From Atrina japonica (Eukaryota > Mollusca > Bivalvia > Pterioida > Pinnidae): DNA of 64,000 bases. The notes below the pieces were generated by a model. The model saw only the letters and a list, made by a program, of their open reading frames with translations. It had not been told where the DNA came from and did no database searches. The stretch lies in contig BROG01000231.1 in assembly GCA_030159075.1 (NCBI GenBank), positions 762,501 through 826,500 of the forward strand, in the 5' to 3' direction. The position numbers were made by a program, and so were the translations under genes. Positions 33,330 to 60,445 of the stretch are shown here, piece by piece (position 1 is the stretch's first letter; each line of letters begins with the position of its first letter).

Positions 33330-33344
33330 CACCCCAGTAGTTAT

Positions 33345-33472
33345 AGGCAGCTCTCCGGTGCGCCATTTGAATTTTGCCGCTAGGGGGCGCCACCAGTGGC
33401 GCTGTTGATGACGTCATCAGAATACTGGCTTCTGATTGTCAATCAATTCAAATGCGCACCGGAGAGCCGCCT
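33345..33472. repeat. terminal T-shaped palindrome, element A left
   Basis: The outer stem AGGCaGCTCTCCGGTGCGC pairs with GCGCACCGGAGAGCcGCCT and extends through ATTTGAATT/AATTCAAAT, about 28 bp with one A/C mismatch. Inside lie GCGCCAC/GTGGCGC, the 14-bp palindrome TGATGACGTCATCA and TCAGAA/TTCTGA. The layout resembles parvoviral terminal hairpins. Confidence 0.88.
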
Positions 33473-33975
33473 GTGACGTCACAACCGGAAGTGTGTCATA
33501 ATACCGGAAGTGAGGTCATACCGAAGTGAGGTCATACCGGAAGTGAGTCATGTTTGTCATGGCAATAAGGAAAAGAGCCAATCGTTGAGCTTGGAGGCGT
33601 GTCTATGAACCGGAAGTGGAAGGTTGCGGGGGCGGCCATTTTGGTTAAGGAGCCAATGAAAGCCTTCGTTTACAAGATGATGGGGTCACGAGAAGTCACA
33701 AGAGGTCACGTGAGTTCCCCGAGAAGTCAACGGGAAGAGAGAGAAATGGGTTTTTCCAGTTTTGAGCTGAGAGTGAATCTATTTTTAGAAACCGAAACTT
33801 TGGGGTTTCCCAGTTTTGAGCTGAGAGTGAAATCTATTTTTAGAACCGAAACTTTGGGTTTTTCCAGTTTGTGAAACTAGCAGTTGGTGGCGCTACCGTC
33901 GGTGAAACCTAGTAGTTGGTGGCGCCACCGTCGTTAAGAGTTGTGTATCATGCGCATGCGCGAGAAGCGATTAGG
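33473..33975. promoter_or_regulatory. terminal enhancer/promoter array of element A (left)
   Basis: Tandem ACCGGAAGTG (perfect ETS/GABP-type sites) alternate with TGACGTCA, GAGGTCAT and TGAGTCA between 33,476 and 33,550. CCAAT boxes follow (AGCCAATCG, GAGCCAATG), then a YY1-like GCGGCCATTTTGG, CACGTG near 33,708, and an NRF1-type GCGCATGCGC near 33,952. All five termini of this family in the window carry the same set. Binding is inferred from consensus only. Confidence 0.7.
33749..33870. repeat. ~54-bp tandem units in arm A-left
   Basis: About 2.5 copies of a unit with CCAGTTTTGAGCTGAGAGTG, TCTATTTTTAGAACCG and AAACTTTGGG. Copy number differs between arms (about three in B-left, two in each right arm, one in C). 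Confidence 0.85.
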
Positions 33976-34024
33976 CCGAGCTCGATTCAAGCTTGAACTA
34001 AGACTTGTACTAAGGCTTGTAGAG

Positions 34025-34330
34025 TGACGAGTATAGTGTACAAAGGGAGATCACTCTGTATAAGACTTTACAGGTGAAACAAAGGGAGATTACTCTGTAT
34101 AGCTTGTATGAGTAGGACTAAAGGGAGATCACTCTGTATAGACTGTATAGGTGAAACAAAGGGAGATTACTCTGTATAGACTTTATAGGTGAAACAAAGG
34201 GAGATTACTCTGTATAGACTATAGAGATGGGGCAAAGGGAGATCACTCTGTATAGACTGTATACATGAAACAAAGGGCGATTACTCTGTATAGACTATAG
34301 GGGTGGAACAAAAGGGGCGATGACTCCTAT
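34025..34330. repeat. ~37-bp tandem array (eight copies), arm A-left
   Basis: Units of ACAAAGGGAGATCACTCTGT followed by ATAGACT and a variable AGGTGAA part. The same array with about the same copy number is in element B (47,518-47,800). Absent from the right arms. Confidence 0.9.
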
Positions 34331-34449
34331 ATGGGGTGTAATACACTTAACCAGAGAGGGAGGGTGGGTGGGTAGTGAAATAGAAAGTATAGGAAGGGTA
34401 GCCATCTTGGGTATGGAATCATGGGACTGACTAATCTCACGGCTGGAGT

Positions 34450-34800
34450 GAGAACCATAGAACATGAAAGTGTGTAACGTACTCAAAGTTTGTCAAAAGT
34501 GATCAAGTGTGTACCGTTCTCATGTTTCAAAGTTTTGTCAAAGTGATCAAGTGTTTGTGTCGTTCTCAAAGTTTGTCAAAGTGATCAAGTGTGTACCGTT
34601 CTCATGTTTCAAAGTTTGCAACGTGTGCAACGTTCTAAGTTATGAAGTCTCAAAGTGACACAAGTGACAAAGTGACACAAGTAGTTTGTGTCGTTCTCAA
34701 AGTTTGCAACGTGTGTACCGTTTCTTAGTTATGAAGTCTCAACGAGTGACACGAAGTGACAAAGTGACACAAGTAGTAAAGTGTAAAGTATGAAGTTGTT
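34450..34800. repeat. AAAGTTTGTCAAAGTGATCA tandem repeats, arm A-left
   Basis: Interleaved repeats of GTGTGTACCGTTCTCA, AAAGTTTGTCAAAGTGATCA and AAGTGACACAAGT. Shared with element B at 47,955-48,205. Non-coding. Confidence 0.8.
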
Positions 34801-34872
34801 CACCATTACAGTCGTTTCAACAAGTTTTTATATTTCTTGTACTACTGTATATAAAAATAAAAAATTAAACAC

Positions 34873-34955
34873 TCACCCAGAGAGAGTTTTTCTGACGATG
34901 TTGACTCTTCGAGCTTCGGCTGCCAAATGAGCTCTCAGTAGTCTAACTGAAGTTA
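34873..34955 (-). promoter_or_regulatory. outward leader-like unit with splice donor, A-left
   Basis: On the minus strand this reads AGCTCGAAGAGTCAACATCG, TCAG, a short A-run, then CTGGGTGAGTGTTT. GGGTGAGTG is a good 5' splice-site match. Related units lie in every arm, always oriented toward the element end. Function is inferred. Confidence 0.55.
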
Positions 34956-35177
34956 TTCTCAAGTGTTTAATGTTACTATTTTTTTAGAATTGCCCTCGTT
35001 TTGAATTTTTTATCTCTAACTAAACTTTTTCTCAAAGTGTTTAATGTTACTATTTTTAGAATTGATTTCTATCTCATAAAATTTGTTCAATCAAGTAAAA
35101 AGAATTAACTTACTTACTACTAGACTTAACCACTATAGTATAAACACAAACACAAAAACTGCATAGTTTCAGTTAAG

Positions 35178-35216
35178 GTTTCTTTTCGTGTAAGTTAGGT
35201 GGCCCTGAAAAGGGCC
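35178..35216 (-). terminator. histone-type 3' stem-loop and purine element, A-left gene
   Basis: Minus strand: AAAC, then GGCCCTTTTCAGGGCC (35,201-35,216; 6-bp stem, UUUC loop), then ACC, then ACGAAAAGAAACC (35,178-35,190). This is the architecture of metazoan replication-dependent histone mRNA 3' ends (SLBP stem-loop plus U7-directed downstream element). It lies ~30 bp after the gene's apparent stop. Confidence 0.85.
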
Positions 35217-35244
35217 GTTTGTTTTTTCGGGTTTAAAAAACCCT

Positions 35245-35620
35245 ATTCCCCGTCCATCAGACGTCGCAACTGACTGACTTGCACTTCTTTTTCCTTTATC
35301 AGTCGTCTAATTTCCTGCTCCTGGCAGCCTCAGAAGTCTCAAATCTGCCTGAGCCAATGGTATACTGCAGCTCAGTCAGTGGAGGTGCTGATGGTACAGC
35401 CCTGGGTGCAGGAGGTCTAGGGGGTGGTACCCTAGAACTGCAAGGTGGCGGTGGCGGCGGACGGTCTAAAAATGATGGCCGACGGGGAGTAGGTCGTACT
35501 ACTGTCACTTTGCGTTTCGGCTGCGACGAACACCTGTGAATTCCTCTAATGAAATCTGTTTCACTTTGGAATATCTCCAAACCTGTCCATGGTGATGATG
35601 AACTGATACCGAGTCACACC
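35245..35620 (-). CDS. Pro-rich/coiled-coil small protein, element A copy (frameshifted)
   Basis: The ATG after the conserved leader AGTTCATCATCACC lies near 35,590, but the frame shifts within ten codons. The longest open part (35,299-35,580) encodes a basic segment (KRKVTVVRPTPRRP), then a Pro-rich stretch. Two further single-base shifts are needed near 35,300-35,360 to reach the coiled-coil C-terminus (EIRRLIKEKEVQVSQLRRL) ending at a TAG near 35,245. Homologous to the gene at 58,860 in element B, which ends EINRLMIEKEREVRRWRRLL. No known function. Promoter: CRE plus TATA box. 3' end: histone-type stem-loop. Confidence 0.6.
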
Positions 35621-35630
35621 AAATGTCATG

Positions 35631-35671
35631 TTTATATAGAGACTATGAACGCGCACGCAATCATGACGTCA
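35631..35671 (-). promoter_or_regulatory. TATA box and CRE for the A-left gene
   Basis: Minus strand: TGACGTCA (35,664-35,671), then CTATATAAACATG (TATA at 35,630-35,638), then the 5' leader CTCGGTATCAGTTCATCATC shared with the paralogous gene in element B. Confidence 0.7.
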
Positions 35672-35917
35672 GAGGTCTATTCGGAGTATGAGTTGTTTTC
35701 ATGACTCCTACAACTACTACTACTGACTACTCGGAACGTTTTGTCTTATACCTTAGAATGATACACTACTCAAGTGACTATTGTATATAATACATACATG
35801 ACTGAAGTGACTATGTATATAATACTACATCTCTCAGTTTTCATTGACTAGTATTAAAATGGCCTACTATCAGTCCATATCTCCCGATACGATTATATAT
35901 ATTTAAACAATTAAAGC

Positions 35918-36549
35918 ATGAATTTACCATGGTTGTGGCGGGACCTACCAAATCAGGGAAAACTGTATTTGTAAAACAGTTGATAGAATGGAAGGATCAA
36001 TGGATTCATTCCCCTCCCGACAAAATTGTATGGTGTTATCGTGAATGGCAACCTGCTTATGAAATCTTACAACGGGAACATCAAGTATCACTTCGTTCAA
36101 AATATACCTGAGATGACGAAGTCTTAGTTTTCTGATCCAACTCGTCGTCACCTACTTGTCTTTTGATGATAATGATGGGTAGTAAAGCTCTCGATTCTAT
36201 CGTAGAATGGTTTACAACGTAAAGCTCATCATCGAAACACAAGTGTGATCTACATCACTCAAAACTTGTTTGAATCGTGCTAAACAATATCGTACCATAA
36301 GTCTGAATGCTCATTATCTCGTCCTGTTTAAGGAATCCTAGAGATAAATCTCAAGTGACCAGCTTATCACGATCAAATTAGACCCTACCAGGTTTAAACC
36401 ATGCTTATCACGATGCTACAAATCGTCCCTCATGGTATATCTCTTGATTGATCTCACATGCGTCTACCCCTGATAATCTAAGATTAAGATCAGATCTGTT
36501 TCATCCTTGGTTTACAGGAGGAATAGTGTTGTATACACCTTATAAGTAG
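35918..36549 (+). pseudogene. Polinton packaging ATPase (FtsK/HerA type), frameshifted
   Basis: The Walker A motif GPTKSGKT is at 35,938-35,964, followed by FVKQLIEWKDQWI and VWCYREWQPAYEIL, matching the genome-packaging ATPases of Polintons and adintoviruses. After codon 60 the frame breaks, but family segments continue in other frames: a Walker B-like LLVFDD near 36,150, an SLNAHYLVLFKNP segment near 36,305-36,345, and an LLIDL segment near 36,445. It ends near TAG 36,549. At least four indels are needed. In the family this enzyme pumps DNA into capsids. Confidence 0.85.
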
Positions 36550-36602
36550 ACAGTCACTTTCTCTAAGGGTGTCATTTCTCGTATTCCTGTTAACGTAGAA
36601 TC

Positions 36603-37113
36603 ATGAATCCTTTACCTAAAGCCACCAGTAAACTGGTGACTACTCTAAGAAAATTACAATTGGAGAAAAAGATCCTGTCAGACGTCAAGAACTGTTAGAA
36701 TTAGGTAGAGACGCTTTATTGAAATGGTTTGGTATGGGAGCTAAAAATCTTCTGTCTGGTACCATTCCAGTGACTAAACCTACAGCATCGTTAATACAGA
36801 GAAAATGCTGATCATTTAAAAATCATTGCTGACCCAAAAGCTGATGAAGAAGATAAGAAAACTGCTATCTTAAAACGAGGAGGGGCAGGGTTCTTAGGTG
36901 GGGTAATCATTCGATCCCTGTTACAGTGGGCTAGTCGTCCAAGAAGAACTCTGCACCTAAAAAGAAAAAAAAACACCCCCTCCTCCTAAGCAGAGAAAGC
37001 AGAGCCCTAAAAAAGAAGAAGAGTCTTAAGAGAAGAAGAGTCCTAAGAAGAAGAGTCCTAAGAAGAAGACACCACCATTGATTCTAAAACTAAAATCTGA
37101 AACAGATTCGTGA
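36603..37113 (+). pseudogene. Lys-rich virion-type protein (core-protein-like), frameshifted
   Basis: Starts MNPLPKATSKLVTTLRKLQL. Near 36,875-36,945 it has a Gly-rich hydrophobic segment (RGGAGFLGGVIIRSLLQW), then a strongly basic tail of repeated KKKSPKK-type units (36,955-37,075). The layout suggests a DNA-condensing or minor capsid protein, comparable in style to adenoviral core proteins. That role is inference. Confidence 0.5.
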
Positions 37114-37123
37114 AGCTAATACA

Positions 37124-37616
37124 ATGAATCAGGCTACTCCTACACGAAATACCGTCTCCACCTGTAACCAACAGTCCCGTAGCAGGAACTTCTGCTACTG
37201 CAACATCTATCTTTTGGACAACCTATACGTCTTTCCTGGTAGACCTAATATCAAAATTACACAACGGAAACAACCTTCTATTACTAAGACTAAAGCAGTC
37301 CTACAGGCACTGAATGTACCTAAGAAGTCTACTCTTACTAATACTTCCAAGCAGTCTTTGTTATTTCCCTTATTACCAAAACCTTTAACTGCTAAAGATG
37401 TTATCATCTCAGCGGAACAAACATGTTACATCTACTCCAAAGTCTACTCGTTTACCTTCGTTTGCTTCTACCTTTGGATCTCCCATCACCAGTCAGCCTA
37501 AGACACAGGCTACTTCATATATGAATAGCTACAAATGTCTATGGTGTCGGGCTCTTTTTACTACGAGTAAAGAACTTCAAGATCAAAAACGACTTCAACA
37601 TCCTATGTTGATATAG
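37124..37616 (+). pseudogene. unknown protein with CxxC C-terminal motif, frameshifted
   Basis: Begins MNQATPTRNTVSTCNQQS. A frame change near 37,400 leads to an S/T/P-rich stretch and a C-terminal YKCLWCRALFTTSKEL...LQHP, half of a C2H2-type zinc finger. Function unknown; a position between ATPase and integrase suggests a virion or regulatory protein. Confidence 0.4.
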
Positions 37617-37684
37617 GTTTATAAAAACTAACCTCAGATCATGTATTGAGTCATTTGTATAGAATACTTAGTTGTAGTGACATC

Positions 37685-38053
37685 ATGGCACCACGAAAAA
37701 AGTAAGCATGGGCTTGAATCTCATGCTGCTTTGATTAAAGTCTTAGACAAAAGCAGTATCCTATTGAGTTTAAAAAGATGATCTTACGGTATGCCCCTGA
37801 TGATACGATCATGAAAATTTGTGAAGTGGTGTATAACATCTTAAAAGGAGTGATTCCTTTAACAAAAACGCCAGAAACAGCACTTGGGTTTCAAAGAAAC
37901 GGGTCTTAAGAAAACTAGTTCATCCTCAATTGACTGTCCCTCAACGACGTCGAATTCTAACGAATCAACAGGGTGGTGTGTTACCTTTTCTTACCCTTAT
38001 TAGCGCCCATTACTAGGAGCCATAGCTTCTCCTGTCTTAAAATCTATTCTATA
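37685..38053 (+). pseudogene. conserved Polinton small protein (LTNQ-GG-LPFL type), frameshifted
   Basis: Starts MAPRKK. A middle open part reads FKKMILRYAPDDTIMKICEV. Near 37,940-38,050 the motif TNQQGGVLPFL and PIASPVLKSIL match a small hydrophobic-tailed protein recurrent in aquatic-animal Polintons. Several indels. Function unknown, probably virion-associated. Confidence 0.45.
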
Positions 38054-38056
38054 ACC

Positions 38057-38900
38057 ATGAGCAGCACACGAAAATGATCTTAGTTCCCGAGAGGACCATG
38101 GAAGAACTCAAAACAATGGAGAGAAAGAAGTTTTAAATCCTTTGCCTCATACACCTGAAGTAGCATCTTCGGTGCGTTTAGGTAATGAATTAGATACGAT
38201 TGTTAGATCGTGAATGATTTGACTCCTGAAGCTAAGGTAGCCAAGTTTGGTCAAGAACTTCATCGATACCGTACGTATCTACAACAAGCTCGTCATCCTG
38301 TAAAGAGAGACCTTGGTCCTCTGAAAACAGATAAAGTCAAAGAAGTCAAAGATGATGTTAAAACTGAAATGTCTTCTGATGATCAAGATCTTATGACAGC
38401 TATTTCATCCAGTGTCACTGCTCCCATTAAAACCAAAAGTCCCTCTGTTATTTAAACATCTCAAGAAACCATTCTGATGTACTAACATGGGAAAAAGACG
38501 GTCAAATACAATACAAAGGAAAGACCGTCCCTGGGACCAATATGATCGATCTCGTAACTGATGCTTTTACGAACACAACCTAGAAAAGGGTATCAACCCT
38601 CGGGACTTGAATAGTTTTGTAAAAGGATTAGTGGAATCGAATGTTCCTCGTGATTGGATACGTAACCCTAATTATATCAAAGTGATGAATCAACCTATTG
38701 TAAAACCAAAGGCTATGAGTACCCCTAAACCTCTGGAAAAATGATGATGAAGATGACACAGGGTTTCTATGACGCTATGGCCTACTCTTCCTTCTACTGA
38801 CATAAAAGATTCTGCAAAGACACACCCCTTAGTCAGAAAATGGTGAAGGATTGGCAAAGATTGACTCCTACGGCCTGGTCTACCATTAAAAAAATCTAAA
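38057..38900 (+). pseudogene. conserved Polinton protein upstream of integrase, frameshifted
   Basis: The start is near ATG 38,057. The best open part (38,210-38,455) reads DLTPEAKVAKFGQELHRY and is charged; its frame stops at 38,455. In shifted frames follow GQIQYKGKTVPGTNMIDLV, NSFVKGLVESNVPRDWI (38,500-38,665) and LTPTAWSTIKK near 38,860-38,890. The middle block is a signature of an uncharacterised Polinton protein family. Ends close to the integrase start. Confidence 0.5.
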
Positions 38901-38920
38901 AAGAGTTCTCATCTTCCAGA

Positions 38921-40052
38921 ATGGAATCAAAACTCAAAATCTTCGCAAATGCCAAATTAGCATCCATCTATTATGATCCTTCTAATCGGGTGTGGTATAT
39001 GCAGGTGTACAACCTCTCTATCGAGAAGTGAATACGTCGAAAGTACCCCCATTTCTCTAAATGAAGTCAAACAATGGTTGAAAGAACAAGACACGTATAC
39101 GCTTCATAAAAATCTATCAAGAGAAAGTTTCCTCGTAACCAAAAACGAGAGTGACCGATATGGATGAACAATGGCAATTAGATTTAGCGGATGTTATCCA
39201 ACATCAAAGACACACAATGGTGGGTATACGTTTCTCTTATGCGTCATTGATGTTCTATCTAAATATGCTTGGGTCATCCCTTTGAAAAATAAATCTGCCA
39301 AAGAAATTGTACGATGGTTTCAGCAGTATTAAAACAAGCTAAAGGACGACGTCCTATTCGTATACAATCCCGATAAAGGAAAAAGAGTTTTTGAATCGTG
39401 AATTTCGTCATACGTTTCATGATATTCATTTCTTTACGACAGACAATACAGAAACAAAAGCTAGTATTGTAGAACGCTTTCAAAGGACCCTAAAAGCTCG
39501 CAAAGTGGAGATATTTTACTCATACTCGTTCACGTCGTTATGTTGACGTTCTACCTCAGATTGTTCAAGCTTATAATCAATCGTATCATCGTAGTATCGG
39601 TAGAAGTCCCATAGAAGTCAATCCTTCCAATGTGTTAGAAGTCTGGGAGACCTTATATGGTACCCCTTCTAAAAACCGTCCATTGCCCCAAGTTTCATAC
39701 AGGTGGATCGCGTACGTATCAGTAAAGTAAAGCGTACATTTGATAAGGATACTTACCTAACTGGACCACGGAACTGTTCACGTCGAGAAACGAGTACCTG
39801 AATCGTTATCCTTATGTGTATTAAACATCCAGGATGATCACCAAGAAACGATTGGAAGGATACGTTTTAACGAATCTGAATTACAACCCGTTGTGAAAAC
39901 CAGATGATGTCTATGAAGTCGAAGAGATTCTCGATCATAGAAAAAGGCGTGTAGGAAAAAATCGTGTTATAGAAGAAGTGAAGGTACATTGGAAAGGATA
40001 TCCTTCTACTTTTGATTCATGGATCCCCAAATCCAACTTGATCGACCAGTAG
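38921..40052 (+). pseudogene. Polinton integrase (DDE, retroviral type) with chromodomain, frameshifted
   Basis: Starts MESKLKIFANAKLASIYYDP. A WLKEQDTYTLHK segment leads into the catalytic core: first Asp in WQLDLAD (near 39,165-39,190), VIDVLSKYAWVIPL (39,244-39,284), second Asp in a broken QSDKG-like site (near 39,365), then HFFTTDNTETKASIVERFQR with the catalytic Glu near 39,470. A C-terminal chromodomain (YEVEEILDHRKRR, then VHWKGYPSTFDSWIP) lies at 39,915-40,045. At least five indels break the frame. Family role: insertion of linear element DNA with 6-bp target duplications. Confidence 0.92.
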
Positions 40053-40173
40053 ACTCAGTAAGCCGAGTGTCTATCAGAGTTACAATGAGCCCACCGAGCA
40101 AACACCCCCGATAGAGTGAGTCATACGCCTAGTACTACTTGGAAATGGTGGTGCGGAGAAAAGATACCTCGGA

Positions 40174-40380
40174 ATGAAATCTGTATTCTTTGTTCAAGTC
40201 ATTCTTGCCTTTACTATCATCATAGCTTGCGTCGTTCATTTGGCTTTGAAAGATGCCAATAGTCAGTTCTGGATGGTTATGTTAAGTGGATGTATGGGGT
40301 ACATCATGCCTAATCCTAGTATGAAACTACCTTCCAAGCAAATCATTGAATCTATAAAGACTTCAAGTTCCTACGTTTGA
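40174..40380 (+). CDS. small membrane protein (68 aa)
   Basis: Intact. An N-terminal hydrophobic segment (VFFVQVILAFTIIIACVVHL) and a second one (FWMVMLSGCMGYIMP) give a probable two-pass membrane protein. A small protein with this FW...GYIMPNP-like end sits before the capsid genes in related elements. Function unknown. Confidence 0.65.
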   Translation: MKSVFFVQVILAFTIIIACVVHLALKDANSQFWMVMLSGCMGYIMPNPSMKLPSKQIIESIKTSSSYV

Positions 40381-40417
40381 ATCCATTCCTAAGGACTGTA
40401 TTTGATAGTGACACATT

Positions 40418-40983
40418 ATGACACTCATCGTTCATAAAGGGGTACCCCGTCAGAAAGGCTACTATGGGCTCTCTTCCCTAAACTGACTCAATCGTTAACG
40501 AGAACAACTCATTGGTCTGATCTCTCCTCAGAGAGGTGGGATCATCAAATCCATTAAGACTTGCAGGGAATATCGTCAATACACCTCGTAGGAGCATTTA
40601 GTCCTAGAGCATCTCGGATATGCAATATGGCAAAGGTATTTGGTCAGACCTTTCTCAAACCTACCATGACGAAAGCCATTCCTCATATAGCTAAATTTGC
40701 TTTGAATAACGGGTATGGATGTGATACAAAATAAACGTTCATTGAAAAATGCTCTTGTTCAAAACGAGGAAAAGAAGCCGTGAGCAACTTAATGACGGGG
40801 TCCTAAGAAAACATTAGCTCGTGCCCCCTCTCATGTCGCTTCTCGTTTAGCAGGCAAAAAACGAACAGGAACAACGAGTCATACGAACAGTAGTATAAAA
40901 AAGAAACGAACGAGCCGCCCCTTTCAGTCTACTTCTACAAGTAAATCTAAACAGGTCGAAAGAGAGCAAGATATCTTTGACTA
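40418..40983 (+). pseudogene. basic pVI-like minor capsid protein, frameshifted
   Basis: N-terminus MTLIVHKGVPRQKGYYGL. A middle part in shifted frames contains KAIPHIAKFALNNGYG, a probable amphipathic helix. The C-terminal part is basic (KKRTGTTSHTNSSIKKKRT) and ends in DIFD just before the capsid start. Position and composition match the basic protein that precedes the major capsid gene in Polintons and is compared with adenovirus pVI; that role is inferred. Confidence 0.55.
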
Positions 40984-40988
40984 ACAAG

Positions 40989-42338
40989 ATGATGATGCAA
41001 AAAGATTCCTGTGAGTGTAGTAGTGAAGCTTTAGAGTTGTTTAATGTCCCTCCCACCAATGTAACCTTAGAAGAAGGAAGATGGGTGGAATAATTACCCC
41101 ATCTCTAGTGTCAATACACAATCTGCTCCTATTGAGTTTTGAAATCAAAGGACAAAGGCGATGAGTATTTGGATTTGAACCAGACCTATGTGTACGTAGA
41201 AGCTAAAATCGTCAAACAAGATGAACTGATCTAGGCAAATGATACTCAAATCACTCCCGTCAACAATTTGATGCATAGTTTGTTTTTCCGTAGATCGATT
41301 GTAATCTAAATGGAAAAGTGATCACTCCTGGAACCGATTACCTATCCCTATCGAGCTTATCTCGAAAAGTTGCTGTCCTTTTCTAACGAAAAACGCTAAA
41401 ATATCAGATTAGTGCTACCAGTTTTAATGTACAAGGATCAACCTGGACGATTTGACAAGTTGAATCCTCATGCCGATGATGTCGCCGAGAAAAACTCAGG
41501 ATTAGCTGATCGTCATGAACGTATCAGTGAAAGTAAAACCTTTAATATGATGGATCGTCCTCCATTTGGATCTGTTTGAACGCAGAACGATTTCTACCTA
41601 ACGGTATAGGTGTACGTTTAAGGTTTAATAGAAGTCGTGAACCCTTTTACATGATGTGTGGAGGAGGGTGAATTAGGTTATTTGAAGATATTACAAAATG
41701 TATCTAGTGGTACGTAAAGTGAAACCCATTGCAACTTTACTGAATCAGATGAACGAACAGATGAAATACCAGTACTGCAAAATTTCCCTTGAGACGTGTA
41801 GAAGTGAAAACGTTTACCATTCCTGCTGGGACACGTTCAAAGATTACAGATCATTTGTATCAAGGTCAAATGCCAAAACGTATAGTAGTAGGTATGGTGA
41901 GCAATGCCGCTTTCAATGGGGATGCGATCCCAAAGAATCCTTTTTTATTTTCAACATTTTAATGTCAATAAAGTGGATGTTAGTATCAATGGAGAAAGTC
42001 TTTGCAAACTCGTCCTTTAGAACCTGACTTTGAAAACAACTTGTACTTGCGCTCTCATACTTGAGCTTATATCAAGGATTAGGTCGATTAGAGAGAAGAC
42101 TGGGGCCCCTTCCGTGACCATTGACAACTATAGAAAAGGGTTTACCTTGTGGTGTTTTGATTTGACAGCTGATCAAGACAATGATCAGAGCAAGTTACAC
42201 TGGATAAAAACAGGAAATTTACGCATCGAACTTCAATTTGCTCAAGCTTTAGCAGAGAGTGTGAACTGCATTGTCTATGGAGAATTTGATAACGTATTAG
42301 AAATCAACAAACAGAGAGAAGTGGCTATAGACTATTGA
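40989..42338 (+). pseudogene. Polinton major capsid protein (double jelly-roll), frameshifted
   Basis: Three alternative ATGs lie at 40,989-40,997. The N-terminus has DSCECSSEALELFNVPPTNV. Then, across indels, come EIKGQGDEYLDLNQTYVYVE (41,143-41,205), NSLMHSLFFRSIDC-like text, YRAYLEKLLSF (41,353-41,385), FYLTGIGVRLRF (41,590-41,630), and an intact C-terminal open part (42,030-42,338) with [16 protein letters not shown] and [14 protein letters not shown]. These are hallmark segments of Polinton/adintovirus capsid proteins. At least six indels. Confidence 0.9.
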
Positions 42339-42341
42339 AAC

Positions 42342-50905: not shown

Positions 50906-50926
50906 ACAAAAACTTTGAGTCACTTT

Positions 50927-51650: not shown

Positions 51651-51697
51651 GTTGATGACTGATTCAAATGATGTTTGGTCACTGCACTTCACTTTAC

Positions 51698-51705
51698 TTT
51701 ATAGC
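51698..51705 (-). promoter_or_regulatory. TATA box of zinc-knuckle gene
   Basis: CTATAAAG about 50 bp before the chosen ATG. Confidence 0.55.
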
Positions 51706-51806
51706 CGTTCTTCTTCTTCTTATTCTATATTTAGACTCGTTCCCGTCAGCCACTTGGATGTTCCCAGAAGGGAGGCTCCACACAGGGTTTTTTGTTTTTG
51801 TTATGT

Positions 51807-52384
51807 TTATATCAGCAATTGACTGAAAGCACAATCTTTAGACCAACGTCGATGTTCTGTAAAAGCATTATCGCTCCATTCCCAATCTTTTAAACAGATG
51901 CCACAAGAAAAACACTGAACGTGGTCACTGTTCCCTAAATACACAAATCCTGCTCTGGCTAATTCTGTCTGTTTAGGTCCCGGTAGATATTAGGCCAATG
52001 ATCTTTAAACGTCAGGTACCTGGATTCATACGTACAAAAATTAGGCAAGGCTAAAGGTATTCTTAATTCCTGATGAAACGATAACCCTCTGACGGTAGCA
52101 GGTCTTAGTTTAAAAGTGGTCACACCTTGTCTCCTTTCGGTAGGTGGAGTCCTTGTCACTTCTATCAGATTGACTCTCGGTACGCTATCCACTTCAACCC
52201 GATGAGCTCGTGGTACACTATCTACTTCTACTCGATGAACTCGTGGTACACTATCCATCATGTCTCGGTTCATGGGAGCACTATCCGTGACGGTCTGACT
52301 AGTATCCATTGTCGATGAAAATAAAGTTTCCATACTTGATGTTCTTTCCATCGTGTCTGAGAGTGAATGGTCCCTGATGTGCAT
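51807..52384 (-). CDS. BIR-domain (IAP-like) protein, one frameshift
   Basis: ATG at 52,384 (MHIRDHSLSDTMERTSS). A central Ser/Thr/Met-rich part holds three repeats of VDSVPRxHRVE, and the first reading frame stops at 51,959. A shift near 51,975 opens the C-terminal part, which carries a BIR zinc fold: LARAGFVYLG, CFSC (near 51,904-51,915), EH (near 51,852) and WSKDC (near 51,835), giving C-x2-C-x16-H-x6-C. BIR proteins bind caspases or IAP antagonists; viral IAPs block apoptosis. No RING is visible. TATA box at 52,393-52,404. Confidence 0.75.
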
Positions 52385-52392
52385 TCTCACTC

Positions 52393-52404
52393 CCTTTTTA
52401 TAAG
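52393..52404 (-). promoter_or_regulatory. TATA box of BIR gene
   Basis: CTTATAAAAAGGGAG on the minus strand, within 20 bp of the ATG; the short spacing suggests either a very short leader or a downstream start. Confidence 0.5.
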
Positions 52405-52440
52405 GTCCATAAAATCTATTTTTAGATCAGAACTAAAAAA

Positions 52441-53030
52441 TCATATTTTTCTACGTTTTTTGTCCTGAAACACAAATTGTATCATCGGTACGTCTACATG
52501 ATGACCAAAAGGATCCCATGCTACTGGTCGTTGTTCTTTATGCACATGATACATCATACCTGCTCGATTGCCATTATTATCATTTAATTGTAAATGAAAA
52601 GTGTCACCGTACATGGGAGACTGACGACAATCGCTTAACCATTGGCGTAGAAACATTAAAATATCATGAGGTATTTCTTCCTGTTCTACTTTTCGTGGTC
52701 GTCCCCTTTTCACCCCTTCCCTCTGTCCCTTTTCTTCTTCTCTTTGTTCTTTTGTTCTCTCTACGGATACTTTGCGTGGACGTCCCCTCTTTCTTTTCAT
52801 TCTCTGTTCTTTTCCTTCATCTCTCTGTCCTTCTGACTTTTTCTCTCCTTCTATCTTTTCCTGTCCTTCCATCGTTTCCCCTATTCTTTCTCTCTGTTTC
52901 TCTTCTTCTCTCTGTTTCTCTTCTCTCTGTTTCTCTTCTCTCTGTTTCTCCCCTTTCCACCCCTTTCGTCTTTTCATATCTTCTTTTCTCGCGTCTTTAG
53001 TCATGTCATTTTCTCTTTTCGTTGGATTCA
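52441..53030 (-). CDS. AT-hook protein with Glu/Lys/Arg-rich repeats
   Basis: Start taken at ATG 53,030 (MNPTKRENDMTKDARKED); an upstream ATG near 53,106 overlaps the end of the preceding gene. The N-terminal half is EKQREEK-type repeats, a probable charged helix. Two AT-hooks follow: KRKRGRPRKV and VKRGRPRKV. The C-terminal 75 residues (FLRQWLSDC, FHLQLNDNNG, AWDPFGHHVDVP) form a compact-looking domain I do not recognise. Likely minor-groove DNA binding in the nucleus. Confidence 0.75.
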
Positions 53031-53107
53031 TATTGATAAATAATACAAGATGTGAACACGATGACTCTCGGTCATCAACTGACCCAAGTCCTGTGTTGCA
53101 CTTCATT

Positions 53108-54145
53108 TTAAATGACACGACGAAAATGAAGTTTGGCAATCACTTTTCCTCCTAGAAAATGAATTTTACGTCCCATGTCATCTCTCAATTGTATTTCGAT
53201 GGTATCAAAATACTTTTTATTTAAACCCCACATAATTGTAATGAAAAGGTTCCCAATGTTGATGATTGAGCGATTGACCCGTTTGAAAAGGGACCACACG
53301 TAATAACGGTAACGATTGTGAACCTACAATTTGACTTTCGGCAATGTTACTGTAGACATAGATACCACTCATACCAATATTTAAAATCGGGTGGATACTT
53401 TGGCATGTGTGTAACATCGATCCATTTAGTCATCTCCTCATTCATGTCAACGGCTTCAAAGCCAAGTTTATAACCTAGTAGACTTGGAAAACGTATTAAA
53501 AAGGGAACGGAATAGATGGATCGGCCTTTAAACTCAATCATGAATCGATCTAAAGCTTCGTCATATCTGAATTTAATAGTATTTTTATGAGAGAGATCTT
53601 CGATCCCATCAATGACATATTGAAAGGCTCTAGAAAAACCAACTTTCATCTCTTCTATTAAAGCAGCAGGAGACGCATAAAGCCCCGAACGAAATTTAAG
53701 TCTCCAAATACTTCCTACAAAAGCGATCCCCGATTTCGTATCAGTTTTAGAGATGACATGATCAAATTGGGGGATCATCTAACGAGACGTGTTTCTTTAT
53801 CAATTCTACAGTAAAACGTTTCATGTTGACGATATATTTCATTTCCTTTCTCTTAGGATACGTAGAGGGGTCCTGGGGATTTTTAGGTGTCACGACGGAT
53901 TCCAAAGGAACGTGAAGGGGAACCAGGACATCTATGTAATTCTCATCGGATGTTATCGATTCTATTAAGTTGGGGAAGATCAATTCATTCAACGCTACTT
54001 CCCACTCACTATCCATCATACTTAAAGCTTGAGGTAAATGAGTTTTGAATTCTGTTAAGGTATTATCGGGAAAGACTTTTAAACTAGCATCGCTAGGTAA
54101 AGTCATGTAAAAACTACCATGATCTTTAGAATCGAGAGTCGCCAT
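53108..54145 (-). CDS. conserved Polinton FPDN-type protein, probable structural (frameshifts)
   Basis: Starts MATLDSKDHGSFYMTLPSDA, then VFPDNTLTEFKTHLPQ and WEVALNELIFP. The frame shifts near 53,770 and again near 53,350-53,410. Later parts read MSGIYVYSNIAESQIVGS, LPLLRVVPF (near 53,300-53,380) and FDTIEIQLRDDMGRKI with GKVIAKLHF (to 53,108). This N- and C-terminal pattern recurs in animal Polintons; the strand-rich ends suggest a capsid-associated protein, not proven here. Confidence 0.6.
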
Positions 54146-54266
54146 GATGCGTGTACTTGAGATCCAACTGTATCAATGAACCCCTACCCTTCACTGTCTT
54201 CTGTTTTATATCATCAACACCAACACCAAAGTCAAGTTTCATACATTTTATTACTCAAAAACAAAC

Positions 54267-54272
54267 TTTATT
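54267..54272 (-). terminator. poly(A) signal overlapping the polymerase stop
   Basis: AATAAA overlaps the TGA stop by one base; a second AATAAA follows at 54,247-54,252. The polymerase gene therefore has an ordinary polyadenylation signal, unlike the small stem-loop genes. Confidence 0.75.
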
Positions 54273-57200
54273 CAATAACCATAAGGTAAAGTACAAAAGT
54301 TTTCAATGCGATGTCTCTTATCATACACGACACGCACTTCTTTAGTCATCGCCTGTGTTTTGACTTTATGTTGTTTCGTTCGCATGATCTTATGAGGGTA
54401 CGATACCAGTACTTTCTTTTGTTGACCACGTAACAACTGTTTCAATGTATCTACGTTGACTGTAGAAGTGGTACGACTATCAAAAATGATCCCTTTGACT
54501 TTACACACCGTTTTGTCCTGACGAGTCTTGTACGCATAATTTTTAGGACCTCCCGAGACAAAGGATAAGATAGAATCGCCATCTAATTCGTCTGTCCATC
54601 CTCCTAAACTGTTTATGATAGTAGGATTCCACTGCTGTGGATCGTGTTGATAAATGATACTGTCTGTATCAAAATATAATACACGTTCTCCCAAACCTTC
54701 TAGGGTGGTATAGAGATGTAACCGTGCTAAAGACGTCGTAAAGGCTGCTAACACTACATTGCTAAAACCATTGGGTTCATCAAAGTCATCCTTCTGTTTT
54801 GAATTCACCAGCATCATGTCTAGCTCATCATGGCCTTCGTCATTTGGAATCAGTTCTAAATGTAATATATCACGAGTATCATCTTGAAGTAACTGTTGTA
54901 ATGCTTCGTAACTCTCCACATACTGTGTAAATTAGTTCGTTGAGCAAATTTACCCCACAAACAGTTCAGAAACAGTTTAGCAATGGTCCGTAAGATAGAA
55001 TTCTTCTCTACATCTTCTTCTCGTATGATCAGTTGTTCTCTCGTTTCAATCTCTTTGAGGTACTGACGACGATCTTCTACTGTTTGACAGGAAGCAGGAA
55101 AACCACTAGCTTGTTGCTTAATCTGGAGAAACTGATCAATATAGCTACGAAAATAAAGTATTGGACTGATCAGAGAAATGCCATACTTCAAAGATACGAT
55201 CGATCACATAACCTTTTTCTATAGCTTTATTCAATTCACACGTCGTCCATGTACCTAACAAACTTCGCTCTTCATTCGTATGAGAGCATCGATAACTCAT
55301 ACCCAACTCCTGTTCGATTCCTTGTTCAGCACAAGTACGGCATAAAGGAAAAAGTAGCTTTCCTCCTGCAAACCGATAAGGTAACACGGGATGAAACAGC
55401 TGACGAGGAGGAATAACTCGACATTGTACCAGTCCAAATATTGATCTAGACTTTTGAAATCATGAGTAATCACGTCTGGGTGTCCAATGGGAAAAGTCCC
55501 ATGTTTCAAGACAAACGGGTACAAAGAACATACATCCACGTAACGAATGTCTCCTTCTTCGCAAAGCAAACGAGTAGCATTCGTTCGACCTCCAAATAAA
55601 GCATCTTTAGGAACTAACGGGTCGGGAAACTCCTCATACGTTTTATCAATGAAATGTTGAAACTCTGGATCCGTCTTGTACCTTTGACGATAGTCATGTT
55701 CCCACAGCGTTTCTACTTGATAGTGTTGACGCAAATACTGATCTCTCTCTAAGGTCTTTTGATACACTTCTTCATACGTCAAAGAAGGATGAAACGGGTG
55801 TTGCTCTTGCTTTAAGTTAGGAAAACACAAGGGGCATCCGTGCCAAAAACAGCCATGAAACTCGTAAAATGGTGCGAGAGTCTTCATGATAACCATCCAC
55901 ACGATAAGATCCTACTTGGACTTCCCCTCCCTGACGAGCATGTCTAATCGTTTGACCAGTTTCATGTTCTTTCCAACTCAACCAGCGTAAATGCTAGGGT
56001 GGAATACTGTCGTGGTGAAGGATATCCCCGCGGAGGTATGATACCAATCGTATCTTTTTGCATATGATTGCGACGATAGGCTATATTTCCCGTACTGGCA
56101 AACGTAATCGATTCAGCAAAGGGGTCCACATCGGTTAGTTTCAAACACATGCTTTGAAAATGCATGCAAGCTTGTCGCAAAATAGTCACGTCCGATTCAC
56201 AGTATTCTTCTAATTCGCATTGCAAATGAAAAATCTCACCCTTTTGAATTTGGACTTGATACCACGCTTCAAAATCACGACGGACATCAGGTTTCATACC
56301 TTCTGGGTTGTAATACATAGCTGGGGGATATACTCCTATGTAATCAGCATTAGCTTCTGTATTGAACAAATGTGGAAAGTAGTCTTTTTTCAGTTCAGTC
56401 AATCCAAAAGCTTTAGGTAACGAAGCTAAAGGAAATGCCAAGAAATTACACGAGTCTTTAAACCTGATGTTTCCAGCCGTCATAGACATAATCTTAGAAC
56501 CGTTCATGATCACATCAGGTTTTTCACAGGCATGATGTACCAGATGATGTAAAATAAACTGTCCATCGTACCCTTTAAAGTTATGAGCAATAGCTATAGC
56601 TCCATCATGTAAAAGTTTCTCCCTTTGATGTATGTCATCATACACGGTCGTTTCAAATAACCAACTCAAAAAATCAGTGAGTGTCGTGGGACCTCGGAAT
56701 GTAATACGATGATCCTCCATGGTTTTACATTGCTCACACCAATCATCGGATGTACACTGGGGACATACACGATGAGCAATACATAGATTAGGTTTGTGTT
56801 CTCCGGTATCCTGGGTACACTCAAAATCATAGAAAATGTAATAAGGGGGTGAAGATGATTCATCCTGAGAAGGGATCCGTTGTATAAAACAGCGATGGTC
56901 TAGATCCACGATCTGTTTACAATGGCGACATTTTTTCTTCTTTTCTTGACAGCAGTGTTGTGTGAATTGTTTCTTACTCATCCATACTTGACAAGTGGGA
57001 CATCGAGTCATTAGCTGACATGGAGTAGTGGTCGTATTTCTACTATAAGGTTTCAAATGATTCTCGTAACACTGAGTCGATGTGAATGTCCCCTGACAAT
57101 GTGTACATTCTATCGGTTTTGTCGTATTGTCGGAAACACAGGGCGACGCTGCAAAACAACGAAAGCAACGCTGAGGGCATCGGTGATCTTCTATATGATC

Positions 57201-58193
57201 ATAACTGACATCACAATGATCACAATAGTAATTACATTCCAAGAGTCCAGACATAGATACGATACAATCGTAATGGTGATCATCGTATAAGACGTGAATG
57301 GGGGCCCCAGATCCCACACCACTATACAGTACATTTAATGTCAATCGTTTTGCATTGGTATTCAGTTCGTAGATTTTCAAACGATAGTGGGGTAACAACA
57401 CAGTCTGAAAACGTTGCCATTCTTCAGGTCCACTCTCTTGCTGGGGATCACATCCAGCTTGCTGTATTAAGGCATGAGCTTCTCGTCGTTGAAGAGTATA
57501 TCTATTTGCATCACCATATTTCAAATTTTGCCAATAGCGTTTCCAGTTTTTGTACTTGTCTCCATCTCCAAGTCCAGGTTTCTGACAATGAAAACGACCA
57601 ACTACAATAGCACGAGCTAAACAGGTCTTGTCTGTATTCTTGATCTGTATCAAACTTCTCTTCTTGTTCAGCATGACTTTTTTATCAACAATGAGATGAT
57701 ATTTTCGTTTTCCACCCCCGCTACCTACAGGTTGTATGACATGGATTACTGACAGGGTGGTAGACCCATCTTCGATTCTAAAATTTTCATTACTCTGTTG
57801 CACTTTCTCAATTTTCTCCATGAGTAGATCAGCATTCAGGTCTTTAGCATCCGTAAATTCTACCCACACTTCACTTTTTAAAGATGGATGATGTATATTG
57901 ACTCTCATCTTATCCCGATCTTCACACTGTAGTTTGTTCTTAATAGAAGTCAACATATGATCTATTACCTCTGATACCAAGTGTATGGCATCTTTAGAAA
58001 AATGTTTAAATTTGACTTGGTACACATTCGAGGCCGTCTTAAACTTACGTGATTTACGCTCACTCAGGGTGTCTACTTCATAGTAATCACTATAATCGGT
58101 GAGTTGTCTGTTTGCATTAAATCCATCACCCCGTTGATCTCTCTGGTGAGCCTGCCTTTGACTTCTCGCCTGTTCTTGTCTTTCATTTAACAA
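54272..58193 (-). CDS. Polinton DNA polymerase B (protein-primed type), 3' half frameshifted
   Basis: A 743-codon intact part (58,193-55,962) has a basic N-terminal domain, Cys/His clusters (CDHC, CPQRCFRC, CTHC, CPTC, CRHC; residues ~330-430), then a 3'-5' exonuclease: ExoI FYDFECTQD (~residue 452), ExoII HNFKGYDGQF (~540), ExoIII YCESDVTIL (~665). After a break near 55,930: an endonuclease-like FYEFHGCFWHGCP block, palm motif A VDVCSLYP (near 55,530), motif B region LFLNCLWGKFAQR (near 54,960) and motif C YFDTDS (near 54,665). Four or so frameshifts separate these. The frame is open above 58,193 without an ATG, so the start is uncertain. No separate terminal protein recognised. Confidence 0.93.
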
Positions 58194-58439
58194 TAAATCA
58201 AAGTTCGGTAAATGAGCTATTCCGTGTGTATGCTTCCGTTGTCAAATCTAAAATGAAGTACGGTAACTGTAGACATGTATTTATAATAAAAAAGAAAAGA
58301 ACTGTATAGATACTCAAACGAGGTATCATCACATTTATATAGTCTTTTATATTCTAGTCTTTTATGTTTTATAGGTCCATAAAACTAGAATGTATTGTAT
58401 TTCGTTTTATTTTCATATAGAATTAGAAATACTAAAAAC

Positions 58440-58775
58440 TAGTGACAGTATCTGTCTTAAAAACAGGTGACCAATGTCTAGACGCAGATGTCTAGACAGA
58501 AAAATCGTCATCAACAACAGGTGGCCATATGTCAAAAACAGGTGGCCAGATGTCAAGTGTCAAAAGTGTCAAAAACAGGTGTTCAGATACCAAGTGTCAA
58601 AAGTGTCAAAAACAGGTGGCCAGATGTCTAGACGTAGATGTCTAGATAGACTACAACAACAGGTGGCCAGATAGCAAGTGTCAAAAACAGGTGTTCATAT
58701 GCCAAGTGTCAAAAATGTCAAAAACAGGTGTTCAGATGCCAAGTGTCAACAACAGGTGGTCAAAGACGCAGATGT
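58440..58775. repeat. ACAGGTGGCCAGATGTC tandem repeats
   Basis: Alternating short units: AACAGGTGGCCAGATGTC, TAGACGCAGATGTCTAGACA and CAGGTGTTCAGATGCCAAGT with GTCAAAA links. Just upstream of the promoter of the gene at 58,860. Multiple CAGGTG E-boxes result. Confidence 0.8.
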
Positions 58776-58800
58776 TCAGACGTGGGAAAAAATCAATACG

Positions 58801-58823
58801 TGACGTCATTCACTCTATATAAG
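58801..58823 (+). promoter_or_regulatory. CRE and TATA box of B-right small gene
   Basis: TGACGTCA (58,801-58,808) then CTATATAAG (58,815-58,823). The leader CTCGGTATTAGTTCATCATC ends at the ATG and matches the leader of the paralogue in element A. Confidence 0.75.
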
Positions 58824-58859
58824 CTAATACTACCTGAGTCTCGGTATTAGTTCATCATC

Positions 58860-59166
58860 ATGGATAACTCATCCGACATGGAAAATGCAACCTGAAGAGA
58901 GAAACATGCGAATCATTCTGACACAGAGGACACGTATTGTAGTAAGGCCACACAACCCAATCAATTCTGGTAGGACCCCTGTGACACCGACTACACAACA
59001 CCAGGAACCACCTAGACCTGACCCTTCACTTCCAGTACCTGTACAATACGTACTAGCTCAGGAAGCATTAGCCAATCTTCGACAACATAAGGCCGAGATA
59101 AATCGACTGATGATAGAAAAAGAAAGAGAAGTTCGGCGTTGGCGACGTCTACTCGACAGATATTAG
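58860..59166 (+). CDS. Pro-rich/coiled-coil small protein, element B copy
   Basis: The ATG directly after the conserved leader starts MDNSSDMEN; that frame stops after 11 codons, and the main frame (from 58,885) reads on as RIILTQRTRIVVRPH, a Pro-rich middle, QYVLAQEALANLRQHK and EINRLMIEKEREVRRWRRLL. One indel near 58,885 joins them. Homologous to the gene at 35,245-35,620. A basic patch, Pro-rich linker and coiled coil suggest a small scaffold or regulatory protein; not recognised. Confidence 0.65.
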
Positions 59167-59204
59167 AGTCTCTCTCTCTTATTCAGCTTTTCGGAGCAAT
59201 CAAC

Positions 59205-59246
59205 GGCCCTTTTAAGGGCCACCCAACTTATTCGGAAAGAAACCTT
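59205..59246 (+). terminator. histone-type 3' stem-loop (B-right gene)
   Basis: CAACGGCCCTTTTAAGGGCC (loop TTTA), then ACCCAAC, then TCGGAAAGAAACC (59,232-59,244). ACCCA and GAAAGAAA are textbook histone 3' flank and U7 downstream element. Confidence 0.86.
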
Positions 59247-59405
59247 CACTTAAGGTATGCAGGGTTTGTGTTTGTATTATTCTGTAGCGGTGAGTTTAAA
59301 AAATAGTGACTACACACTATTTAGTCGCGTATATTCAACATTAAATTTTTATTTGTGTTTTTTGTGTTTTTTGTATTCACTTCATGAGATAAAAGTCTAA
59401 ATAGA

Positions 59406-59697
59406 GTAAGTCATGTGACTAGAGAGAGGTTCAGTTCAGCCTGTGAAAACTCATTTGAGATCCGAAGCTCGAGGTGTTAACATCATAAGAAAAATCCACT
59501 ACTTTTAGCATAGGGTGAGTGTTTCATTTTTTATTGGATCAGACAAGATTATTTTCCATGCACTAAAAATAGAAACAAAAAAAAAGTCACATGACTAGAG
59601 TATAGGTTCAGTTAGACCTCTGAGAGCTCATTTGCAATCCGCAGCTCGAAGAGTCAACATCGTCAGAAAAAAACCACTACCAGCATAGGGTGAGTGT
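59406..59697 (+). repeat. two outward leader-like units with splice donors, B-right
   Basis: Counterparts of 44,638-45,290: GTTCAG, AGCTCGAGGTGTTAACATC or AGCTCGAAGAGTCAACATC, CATAGGGTGAGTG. Two copies versus four in element A. Confidence 0.75.
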
Positions 59698-59754
59698 TTG
59701 AAATTTTTATTACTATATGTTTAGACCCATCACTATACATTTACTCTACAAGTC

Positions 59755-60445
59755 TTAGTACAAGCTTGAGTCGAGCTCGGCCTACAGCTTCTCGCGCTTG
59801 CGCACTTGAAACAGAACTCTCGACGACTAACAGTGACGGGCTCGGCCTACCGCTTCTCGCACATGCGCACTCGCACACTCTTAACGACGGTGGCGCCACC
59901 AACTACGAGTTTCACAAACCTGGAAAACCCCAAAGTTTCGGTTCTAAAAATAGATTCACTCTCAGCTCAAAACTGGAAAAAACCCAAAGTTTCGGTTCTA
60001 AAAATAGATTCACTCTCAGCTCAAAACTGGAAAAAACCCAACTTCTCTCTCTTCCCGTTGACTTCTCGTGAACTCACGTGACCTCTTGTGACTTCTCGTG
60101 ACCCCAACCTCTTGTAACGAAGGCTCTCATTGGCTCCTTAACCAAAATGGCCGCCCCCACAACCTTCCACTTCCGCTCATAGACACGCCTCCAAGCTCAA
60201 CGATTGGCTCTTTCTCCTTATTGCCATGACAACATGACCTCACTTCCGGTATGACGCACTTCCGGTATGACCTCACTTCCGGTATGACGCACTTCCGGTT
60301 ATGACGTCACAGGCGGCTCCATGGCACGCATTTGAATTGACCAATCAGAAGCCAGTATTCTGATGACGTCATCAAACAGCGCCACTGGTGGCGCCCCCTA
60401 GCGGCGAAAATTCAAATGCGTGCCAGGGAGCTGCCTATAACTACT
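59755..60445. repeat. Polinton B right terminal inverted repeat
   Basis: Inverted counterpart of 46,836-47,500: GTGGCGCCACCAACTACGAG, two CTCTCAGCTCAAAACTGG units, YY1-like AAATGGCCGCC, and a TTCCGGT array (60,243-60,300). Ends at CATGTA. Confidence 0.9.
60311..60436. repeat. terminal T-shaped palindrome, element B right
   Basis: Stem CTCCATGGCACGCATTTGAA against TTCAAATGCGTGCCAGGGAG, one extra mismatch. GCGCCACTGGTGGCGC, TGATGACGTCATCA and the conserved A/C mismatch are present. Its stem differs from the other end of the same element. Confidence 0.88.

What the first reader, a model, noticed from the sequence alone, without database searches (positions are those of the whole stretch)
33336..60445. 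Two adjacent Polintons with complementary halves of the gene set: a possible bipartite virus-like system
Element A has integrase, packaging ATPase, major capsid, protease and other virion genes but no polymerase. Element B has DNA polymerase B, a probable structural protein, DNA-binding and BIR proteins but no integrase, ATPase, capsid or protease. Each is ~13 kb with its own arms, terminal hairpins and target duplication. Known Polintons carry polymerase, integrase, ATPase, protease and capsid on one 15-20 kb element. Shared termini, promoters, a 90-bp module and a paralogous gene in both suggest co-replication (polymerase from B) and co-packaging (capsid and ATPase from A) of two genome segments. 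Alternative: reciprocal deletion derivatives of one parent.
Basis: partly seen in the sequence, partly recalled or inferred. Interest (0 to 1): 0.96.

Follow-up and report, generated by a model that had tools for sequence, protein, structure and literature searches.

The report
Polinton virus split across two elements
In this animal genome (likely a mollusc) a virus-like mobile element family exists as two separate multi-copy elements with the same ends, one carrying the capsid and integrase genes and the other the DNA polymerase, so each would likely need the other, much like a virus whose genome comes in two pieces.

Summary
A (33336-46072) carries integrase, protease, capsid and (weakly recognised) packaging ATPase genes; B (46836-60445) carries a type B DNA polymerase. 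Each has its own 6-bp target duplication, ~0.6-kb inverted repeats and terminal hairpins. In the window's own 832-Mb genome both are multi-copy: 30 left arms lead into A (9), B (17, one the window's) or a third, non-coding palindromic type (4). Twelve arm-paired elements are of A (10.3-10.5 kb between markers) or B (10.9-12.0 kb) size, none larger. Of 74 PolB loci, one lies within 12 kb of A genes, and an A arm separates them. Outer arms are as alike between A and B as within (95%) and intermixed in trees, while the terminal genes they share are 45% identical. Two local deletions are excluded; long co-existence with exchange of ends is favoured. I read it as a bipartite polintovirus working by trans-complementation (inferred, not shown). 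Extra: the shared '90-bp module' holds a histone-mRNA 3' stem-loop (RF00032); six occur in A and B, just after small genes, suggesting S-phase-linked, poly(A)-less mRNAs. No all-in-one relative was found, but search lists are capped and virions were not testable.

The parts
33336..46072 (+). Element A (12.7 kb), virion and integration half of the gene set, decayed copy
   Evidence: TSD CACCCC at both ends; a second A copy is colinear at 95% and 93% over the stretches read
33336..35240 (+). A left arm: terminal hairpin, inverted repeat, 38-bp repeats, histone-type 3' end
35175..35221 (-). Histone mRNA 3' stem-loop (RF00032) after the A left-terminal gene
   Evidence: 39.9 bits, gathering 34
35239..35613 (-). 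A left-terminal gene (limits approximate), paralogue of the B right-terminal gene
   Evidence: 45% over 67 aa, E 3e-13, from copies L015 and L005
35848..36560 (+). Probable packaging ATPase (A32/FtsK-like), broken; limits approximate
   Evidence: FtsK_SpoIIIE 0.0038, Pox_A32 0.0077, both below cut-off; Pox_A32 0.025 for the second half in another copy
38900..40050 (+). rve integrase with C-terminal chromodomain, broken; limits approximate
   Evidence: intact stretch of another copy: Chromo 4e-10, rve 0.016, IS481 transposase model 5e-7
40990..42341 (+). Major capsid protein of the double-jelly-roll kind, broken; limits approximate
   Evidence: (95% to P0013 over 79% of the 97-residue region)
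42340..43085 (+). Adenain-like cysteine protease, broken; limits approximate
   Evidence: another copy: Peptidase_C5 0.0039, 1avp 6e-4
44593..46072 (-). A right arm
46836..60445 (+). Element B (13.6 kb), replication half of the gene set
   Evidence: TSD CATGTA at both ends; a second B copy is colinear at 94-97% from left arm to PolB
46836..48650 (+). B left arm
   Evidence: 1038 first-look candidates, 40 scored, in own genome
48587..48633 (-). Histone mRNA 3' stem-loop
49409..49454 (+). Histone mRNA 3' stem-loop
49605..49650 (-). Histone mRNA 3' stem-loop
50344..50389 (+). Histone mRNA 3' stem-loop
51063..51698 (-). Protein with two CCHC zinc knuckles
   Evidence: 4e-11
51807..51989 (-). BIR domain protein
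   Evidence: 3e-20
52441..53139 (-). AT-hook protein
   Evidence: 1e-5
53108..54145 (-). 343-aa protein of unknown fold (open in other copies), frameshifted here
   Evidence: no family, PDB or usable model
54272..58241 (-). Type B DNA polymerase, broken by a few frameshifts here
   Evidence: PF03175 in three of four pieces; P0003 88% identical over 43% of the query; oyster relatives
58828..59166 (+). B right-terminal gene
59200..59246 (+). Histone mRNA 3' stem-loop
59359..60445 (-). B right arm
   Evidence: 1615 first-look candidates, 40 scored, in own genome
61546..62340 (+). Left arm of a third element, type undetermined (weak lean to type S), with a retroelement pol fragment directly behind it

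Best explanation
A and B are two separate, multi-copy Polinton element types with the same ends and complementary genes, and they likely act as the two segments of one bipartite virus-like system in which A would supply integrase, protease, packaging ATPase and capsid and B would supply the DNA polymerase in trans. The common terminal hairpins and inverted repeats would be the origin for the B polymerase, the substrate for the A integrase and possibly the packaging signal, so any DNA with these ends is served; a non-coding palindromic type (S) with the same ends looks like a hitch-hiker made by snap-back replication. Outer arms of A, B and S are intermixed in trees (shown), which I read as exchange of ends while the gene cores stay apart. 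Small genes, among them the paralogous terminal genes of A and B, stop just before histone-type 3' stem-loops and are predicted to give poly(A)-less, S-phase-linked mRNAs. Shown: gene split, copy families, sizes, shared ends, stem-loops. Inferred: trans-replication, trans-integration, co-packaging, snap-back origin of S, S-phase timing.
For: Own genome: the first 1.5 kb inside 30 left arms is A in 9, B in 17 (one is the window), S in 4. Of 40 left arms, 11 have MCP or integrase and 7 PolB at the expected distance, 0 both, 22 no scored marker. All 30 PolB loci read match B, 21 in one unbroken block; none encodes the capsid protein within the 1.5-kb flanks. 70 of 111 MCP loci have integrase within 5 kb, against 1 of 74 PolB loci with any listed A gene within 12 kb, and there an A arm lies between. 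Twelve arm-paired elements: 4 of A size, 10.28-10.49 kb (three typed A by genes, one untyped), 8 B, 10.90-11.99 kb (five by PolB position, two by inner flank, one the window), none larger (PolB of C71 and C287). A second A copy, read in stretches from arm to arm, has no PolB; a second B copy, read from left arm through PolB and 1.5 kb beyond, has no A gene. Outer-arm identity AA 95.0, BB 95.0, AB 94.8%; A/B labels random on outer and middle arm trees (8 and 9 changes; shuffles 8.3 and 8.4), separated next to the genes (4 changes, 3 of 2000 shuffles). Selection on both halves: PolB pairwise dN/dS 0.225-0.54 (21 pairs, 7 copies); MCP 0.14-0.38 in the 6 pairs of 4 copies. Stop-free matches over the whole query exist for both (5 of 95 MCP loci, 441-aa query; 2 of 51 PolB loci, 899-aa query). 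S is a palindrome with 98.4% identical halves and no ATG ORF of 70 aa in the 4.3 kb read.
Against: No virion, episome or expression was seen. Searches scored only the best 40-150 of about 750-2460 first-look candidates, so rare all-in-one elements could be missed, and the left-arm sample is the part most like the window's B arm. A complete Polinton of another family, or an exogenous virus, could serve both: seven MCP loci probably of another family exist and their gene sets were not read. MCP dN/dS is 0.60-1.07 in the four pairs that include one copy, and only stop-free copies were used. Three B arms, the window's own among them, group with A even next to the genes. Intermixed arms could also come from ordinary ectopic gene conversion in the host genome.
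Confidence: 0.7

Rival explanations
1. A and B are two lineages of deletion derivatives of one complete Polinton, both amplified in trans by rare complete elements or by an exogenous virus with the same ends.
For: Shared left- and right-specific arms; non-coding S elements show that DNA with these ends is amplified without genes; 9 of 72 Polintons of a published set lack MCP, protease and ATPase together (PMC4028283).
Against: No complete element among 74 PolB loci, 190 A-marker loci or 12 arm-paired elements (capped lists). A defective derivative need not keep its genes, yet both halves have stop-free copies and dN/dS mostly below 0.5. The A left-terminal gene matches the B right-terminal gene (45%), with no match to the B left-terminal gene, so A and B are not simple complementary cuts of one colinear map.
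Confidence: 0.17
2. B is a self-sufficient replicon or helper, and A, S and others are satellites that use it; B is itself integrated by unrelated means.
For: Only B has a recognised polymerase; S shows that satellites of these ends exist.
Against: B has the same 6-bp kind of target duplication and the same ends as A but no integrase recognised; A keeps the whole capsid and integrase module.
Confidence: 0.08
3. Chance: two old, unrelated deletions of neighbouring Polintons in this window, or an assembly artefact.
For: Both window copies carry frameshifts.
Against: The same two architectures recur on many contigs.
Confidence: 0.02

Closest known systems
Polinton/Maverick elements (polintoviruses, adintoviruses; Eupolintoviridae)
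   Same: PolB, rve-chromodomain integrase, adenain-like protease, probable packaging ATPase, double-jelly-roll MCP, long inverted repeats; 6-bp target duplication (recalled as typical)
   Different: Known ones are 15-20 kb and described with the set on one element (PMC4028283, passages and sections 4-5 read); here it is split over 12.7- and 13.6-kb elements with common ends, and small genes have histone-type 3' ends
Bidnaviridae (Bombyx mori bidensovirus)
   Same: Two linear DNA segments with conserved termini and a Polinton-derived PolB on one of them, packed in separate capsids (PMC4061559, passages seen)
   Different: ssDNA, parvovirus-derived jelly-roll capsid, 6 and 6.5 kb (same passages); no integrase (recalled); here integrated dsDNA elements with a double-jelly-roll capsid gene
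Polintons lacking the capsid module (9 of 72 in PMC4028283)
   Same: MCP, protease and ATPase missing together, as in B
   Different: There read as concerted loss; B also lacks a recognised integrase and coexists with a partner family that has the missing genes
Replication-dependent histone mRNAs
   Same: RF00032 3' stem-loop
   Different: Sits behind small genes of a mobile element that look unlike histones (no family search of them was run)

Membership tests
Polinton/Maverick | Long terminal inverted repeats and 6-bp target duplication | tested here: met
   for both A and B
[quoted passage not shown]
   type B polymerase in B only, none in A; priming by a terminal protein was not tested
Polinton/Maverick | rve integrase | tested here: met
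   A only; none recognised in B, and a second B copy is colinear with it
Polinton/Maverick | Double-jelly-roll MCP and adenain-like protease | tested here: met
   A only: MCP fold (modest model), protease
Polinton/Maverick | Packaging ATPase | tested here: inconclusive
   A only, matches below the curated cut-offs
Polinton/Maverick | Penton (PX) | tested here: inconclusive
   no match for the 343-aa B protein; no A candidate identified
Polinton/Maverick | All core genes on one 15-20 kb element | tested here: not met
   neither A nor B alone is a complete Polinton, only the pair holds the set
Bipartite/multipartite virus | Segments share terminal sequences | tested here: met
Bipartite/multipartite virus | Each segment lacks functions supplied by the other | tested here: met
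   gene content only; dependence itself not shown
Bipartite/multipartite virus | Segments are packaged into virions and transmitted | not testable with these tools
   needs virome or particle DNA
Bidnaviridae | Parvovirus-type capsid | tested here: not met
   the recognised capsid gene is of the double-jelly-roll type

The most novel reading that the evidence does not exclude
A long-lived bipartite polintovirus: capsid/integrase segment A and polymerase segment B, obligate partners that keep near-identical ends by exchange, carry palindromic satellites S along, and couple their small genes to host S phase through hijacked histone mRNA 3' ends.
Probability: 0.45. Interest if true: 0.95.

Novelty: new variant of a known kind. 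Interest (0 to 1): 0.88.

Why it matters
My searches found no split Polinton in print (the one paper with 'bipartite' and Polintons in title or abstract that I checked uses the word for a gene-sharing network in the passages seen). It would show how a single-piece virus-like transposon becomes a multipartite one, with bidnaviruses as the known parallel. Copy counts, paired arms and arm exchange in one genome make the origin of multipartite genomes testable. The histone-type mRNA ends would be a way for a mobile element to tie expression to DNA replication; no listed paper holds both subjects.

Tried and rejected
Two local deletions at this locus: rejected. Mixed-element candidates: four PolB loci lie within 25 kb of listed A genes, besides the window itself. 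C127: the right end of its A was read, followed by about 8 kb without element genes; the left arm of its B was not in that stretch. C185: an A left arm lies between, with a truncated B beyond. C410 and C73: judged separate from orientation and distance only. Identity of the 343-aa B protein: no family or PDB match, model useless (pLDDT 33). Viral contig scans: PolB single query 0, PolB alignment 3 remote loci, MCP alignment 0. A genome-wide RF00032 search did not complete. Type of the third left arm in the window: only a weak match to S. Host identity is inferred from oyster relatives only.
Full report
What is there. A spans 33336-46072 and B 46836-60445, 763 bp apart, each flanked by its own 6-bp duplication (CACCCC; CATGTA) and bounded by about 0.6-kb inverted repeats with strong terminal hairpins. 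A third left arm starts at 61546. A encodes a chromodomain integrase, an adenain-like protease, a weakly recognised packaging ATPase and a capsid protein; B encodes PolB, BIR, CCHC and AT-hook proteins. The capsid call rests on an intact 95%-identical relative whose modest model (pLDDT 57) matches Sputnik, mavirus and PBCV-1 capsids, best E 2.6e-13, 4.6e-13 and 8.4e-13, TM about 0.4-0.5. The A copy in the window is heavily frameshifted, the B copy mildly.

Is the split general? The window lies in an 832-Mb assembly of 2347 contigs. Thirty left-arm loci were typed by the first 1.5 kb inside the arm: 9 A, 17 B including the window's own, 4 of a third type S. That flank alone cannot exclude the other genes further in; positions can. 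For the 40 scored arms, 11 are followed by MCP or integrase, 7 by PolB, none by both, 22 have no scored marker. PolB loci: 30 of 30 read (of 51 scored) match B, 21 as one unbroken block, and none encodes the capsid protein in its 1.5-kb flanks. Union lists: 74 PolB loci, 111 MCP loci (seven probably of another family) and 149 integrase loci; 70 of 111 MCP loci have integrase within 5 kb, which shows that linked genes are found; 1 of 74 PolB loci has a listed A gene within 12 kb and 4 within 25 kb; the window itself is a fifth, its A being absent from the lists. At C185 an A left arm lies between the genes, with a truncated B beyond. At C127 the A right end was read, followed by about 8 kb without element genes; the B left arm was not seen there. 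C410 and C73 were judged by orientation and distance only. Pairing 51 left and 40 right arms gives 12 elements: four of A size (10.28-10.49 kb; three typed by genes, one untyped) and eight B (10.90-11.99 kb), plus one span from the left arm of the window's A to the right arm of its B, which is not an element. A second A copy read in stretches from arm to arm is colinear with the window and has no PolB; its outer right arm is cut short. A second B copy is colinear from left arm through PolB.

Are they partners? Outer and middle arm sequences do not separate by type (8 and 9 label changes against 8.3 and 8.4 on average in 2000 shuffles; 10 A and 17 B tips), while the gene-proximal 0.6 kb does (4 changes, reached by 3 of 2000), with three B arms, the window's own included, grouping with A there; outer-arm identity is 95.0% within A, 95.0% within B, 94.8% between. 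Yet the terminal genes shared by A and B are only 45% identical, so the cores look much older than the ends. Exchange of ends between co-replicating segments would give that; host gene conversion could do the same. Both halves show purifying selection in most pairs: PolB median dN/dS 0.31 over 21 pairs of 7 copies; MCP 0.14-0.38 in 6 pairs, but 0.60-1.07 in the four pairs that include one copy; only stop-free copies were used. Stop-free matches over the whole query exist for both (5 of 95 MCP, 441-aa query; 2 of 51 PolB, 899-aa query that is itself shorter than the 1318-aa oyster relative).

Third type S. Four arms from three contigs carry left arm followed by inverted right-arm sequence or other non-A, non-B sequence. 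In one element the 4.3 kb read is a palindrome with 98.4% identical halves and has no ATG ORF of 70 aa. Snap-back synthesis by a protein-primed replicase is my inference. It shows that DNA with these ends is amplified without own genes.

Histone-type ends. Rfam RF00032 matches six times between 30000 and 64000, all inside A (1) or B (5), above the gathering score, E 1.5e-8 to 1.8e-6. Each follows a small ORF on the same strand within about 100 bases (ORFs). At the expected place a pattern for the loop occurs in 7 of 9 A, 15 of 17 B and 3 of 4 S arms. A second B copy has three at gathering score; the S core and the A interior read have none, the latter starting beyond the A site. S-phase coupling is predicted from the known use of the element in histone mRNAs, not shown.

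Compared with what is known. Polintons are described as 15-20 kb elements with the core set; 9 of 72 lack MCP, protease and ATPase together, read as loss (PMC4028283, passages and sections 4 and 5 read). Bidnaviruses are bipartite with a Polinton-derived PolB and conserved termini (PMC4061559, passages). PMC11071296 (passages) mentions segmented bidna-class parvoviruses, and no split adintovirus in the passages seen. PMC11071308 (passages) assigns terminal-protein and protease domains to Polinton PolB; I did not test them here. Searches for bipartite, segmented or multipartite Polintons gave no such report in their listings ('bipartite' in PMC12220804 is a network in the passages seen), and Polinton with SLBP or histone 3' ends none. 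The library lacks most subscription journals.

Limits. Scored lists are capped; absence of an all-in-one element is strong for common types, weak for rare ones. Trans-replication, integration and packaging are inference from gene content and shared ends. The penton gene was not found in either element.

Noticed in passing
window 1-10000: Ten kilobases of extremely T-rich sequence (GC 9-12%, AT skew -0.6 to -0.7), unlike the rest of the window; could be an odd satellite or an assembly artefact.
   Followed up: no
window 62298-63716: Retroelement pol fragment with H2C2 and rve integrase domains right behind the third left arm; probably a Gypsy-type insertion.
   Followed up: partly
window 60769-60867: About 100-bp inverted repeat between B and the third arm that scores as several miRNA precursor families below gathering, several of them on both strands; probably a MITE-like hairpin.
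   Followed up: no
L064 (own genome, contig C2): Non-coding palindromic element with the A/B ends, halves 98.4% identical.
   Followed up: yes
own genome C270, C455, C1462, C1588, C307, C784, C763: Seven MCP loci, 33-38% to the query P0022 and absent from the list, probably another Polinton capsid family; their polymerases were not located.
   Followed up: partly
L074 (own genome, contig C185): An A left arm abuts a truncated B that keeps a remnant of the stem-loop region; may be one element inserted into the other.
   Followed up: partly
L001, L002: A 316-kb IMG/VR contig with two stretches remotely like this PolB (33-37% identity).
   Followed up: no
window 50658-50906: Three tandem 83-bp repeats inside B.
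   Followed up: no
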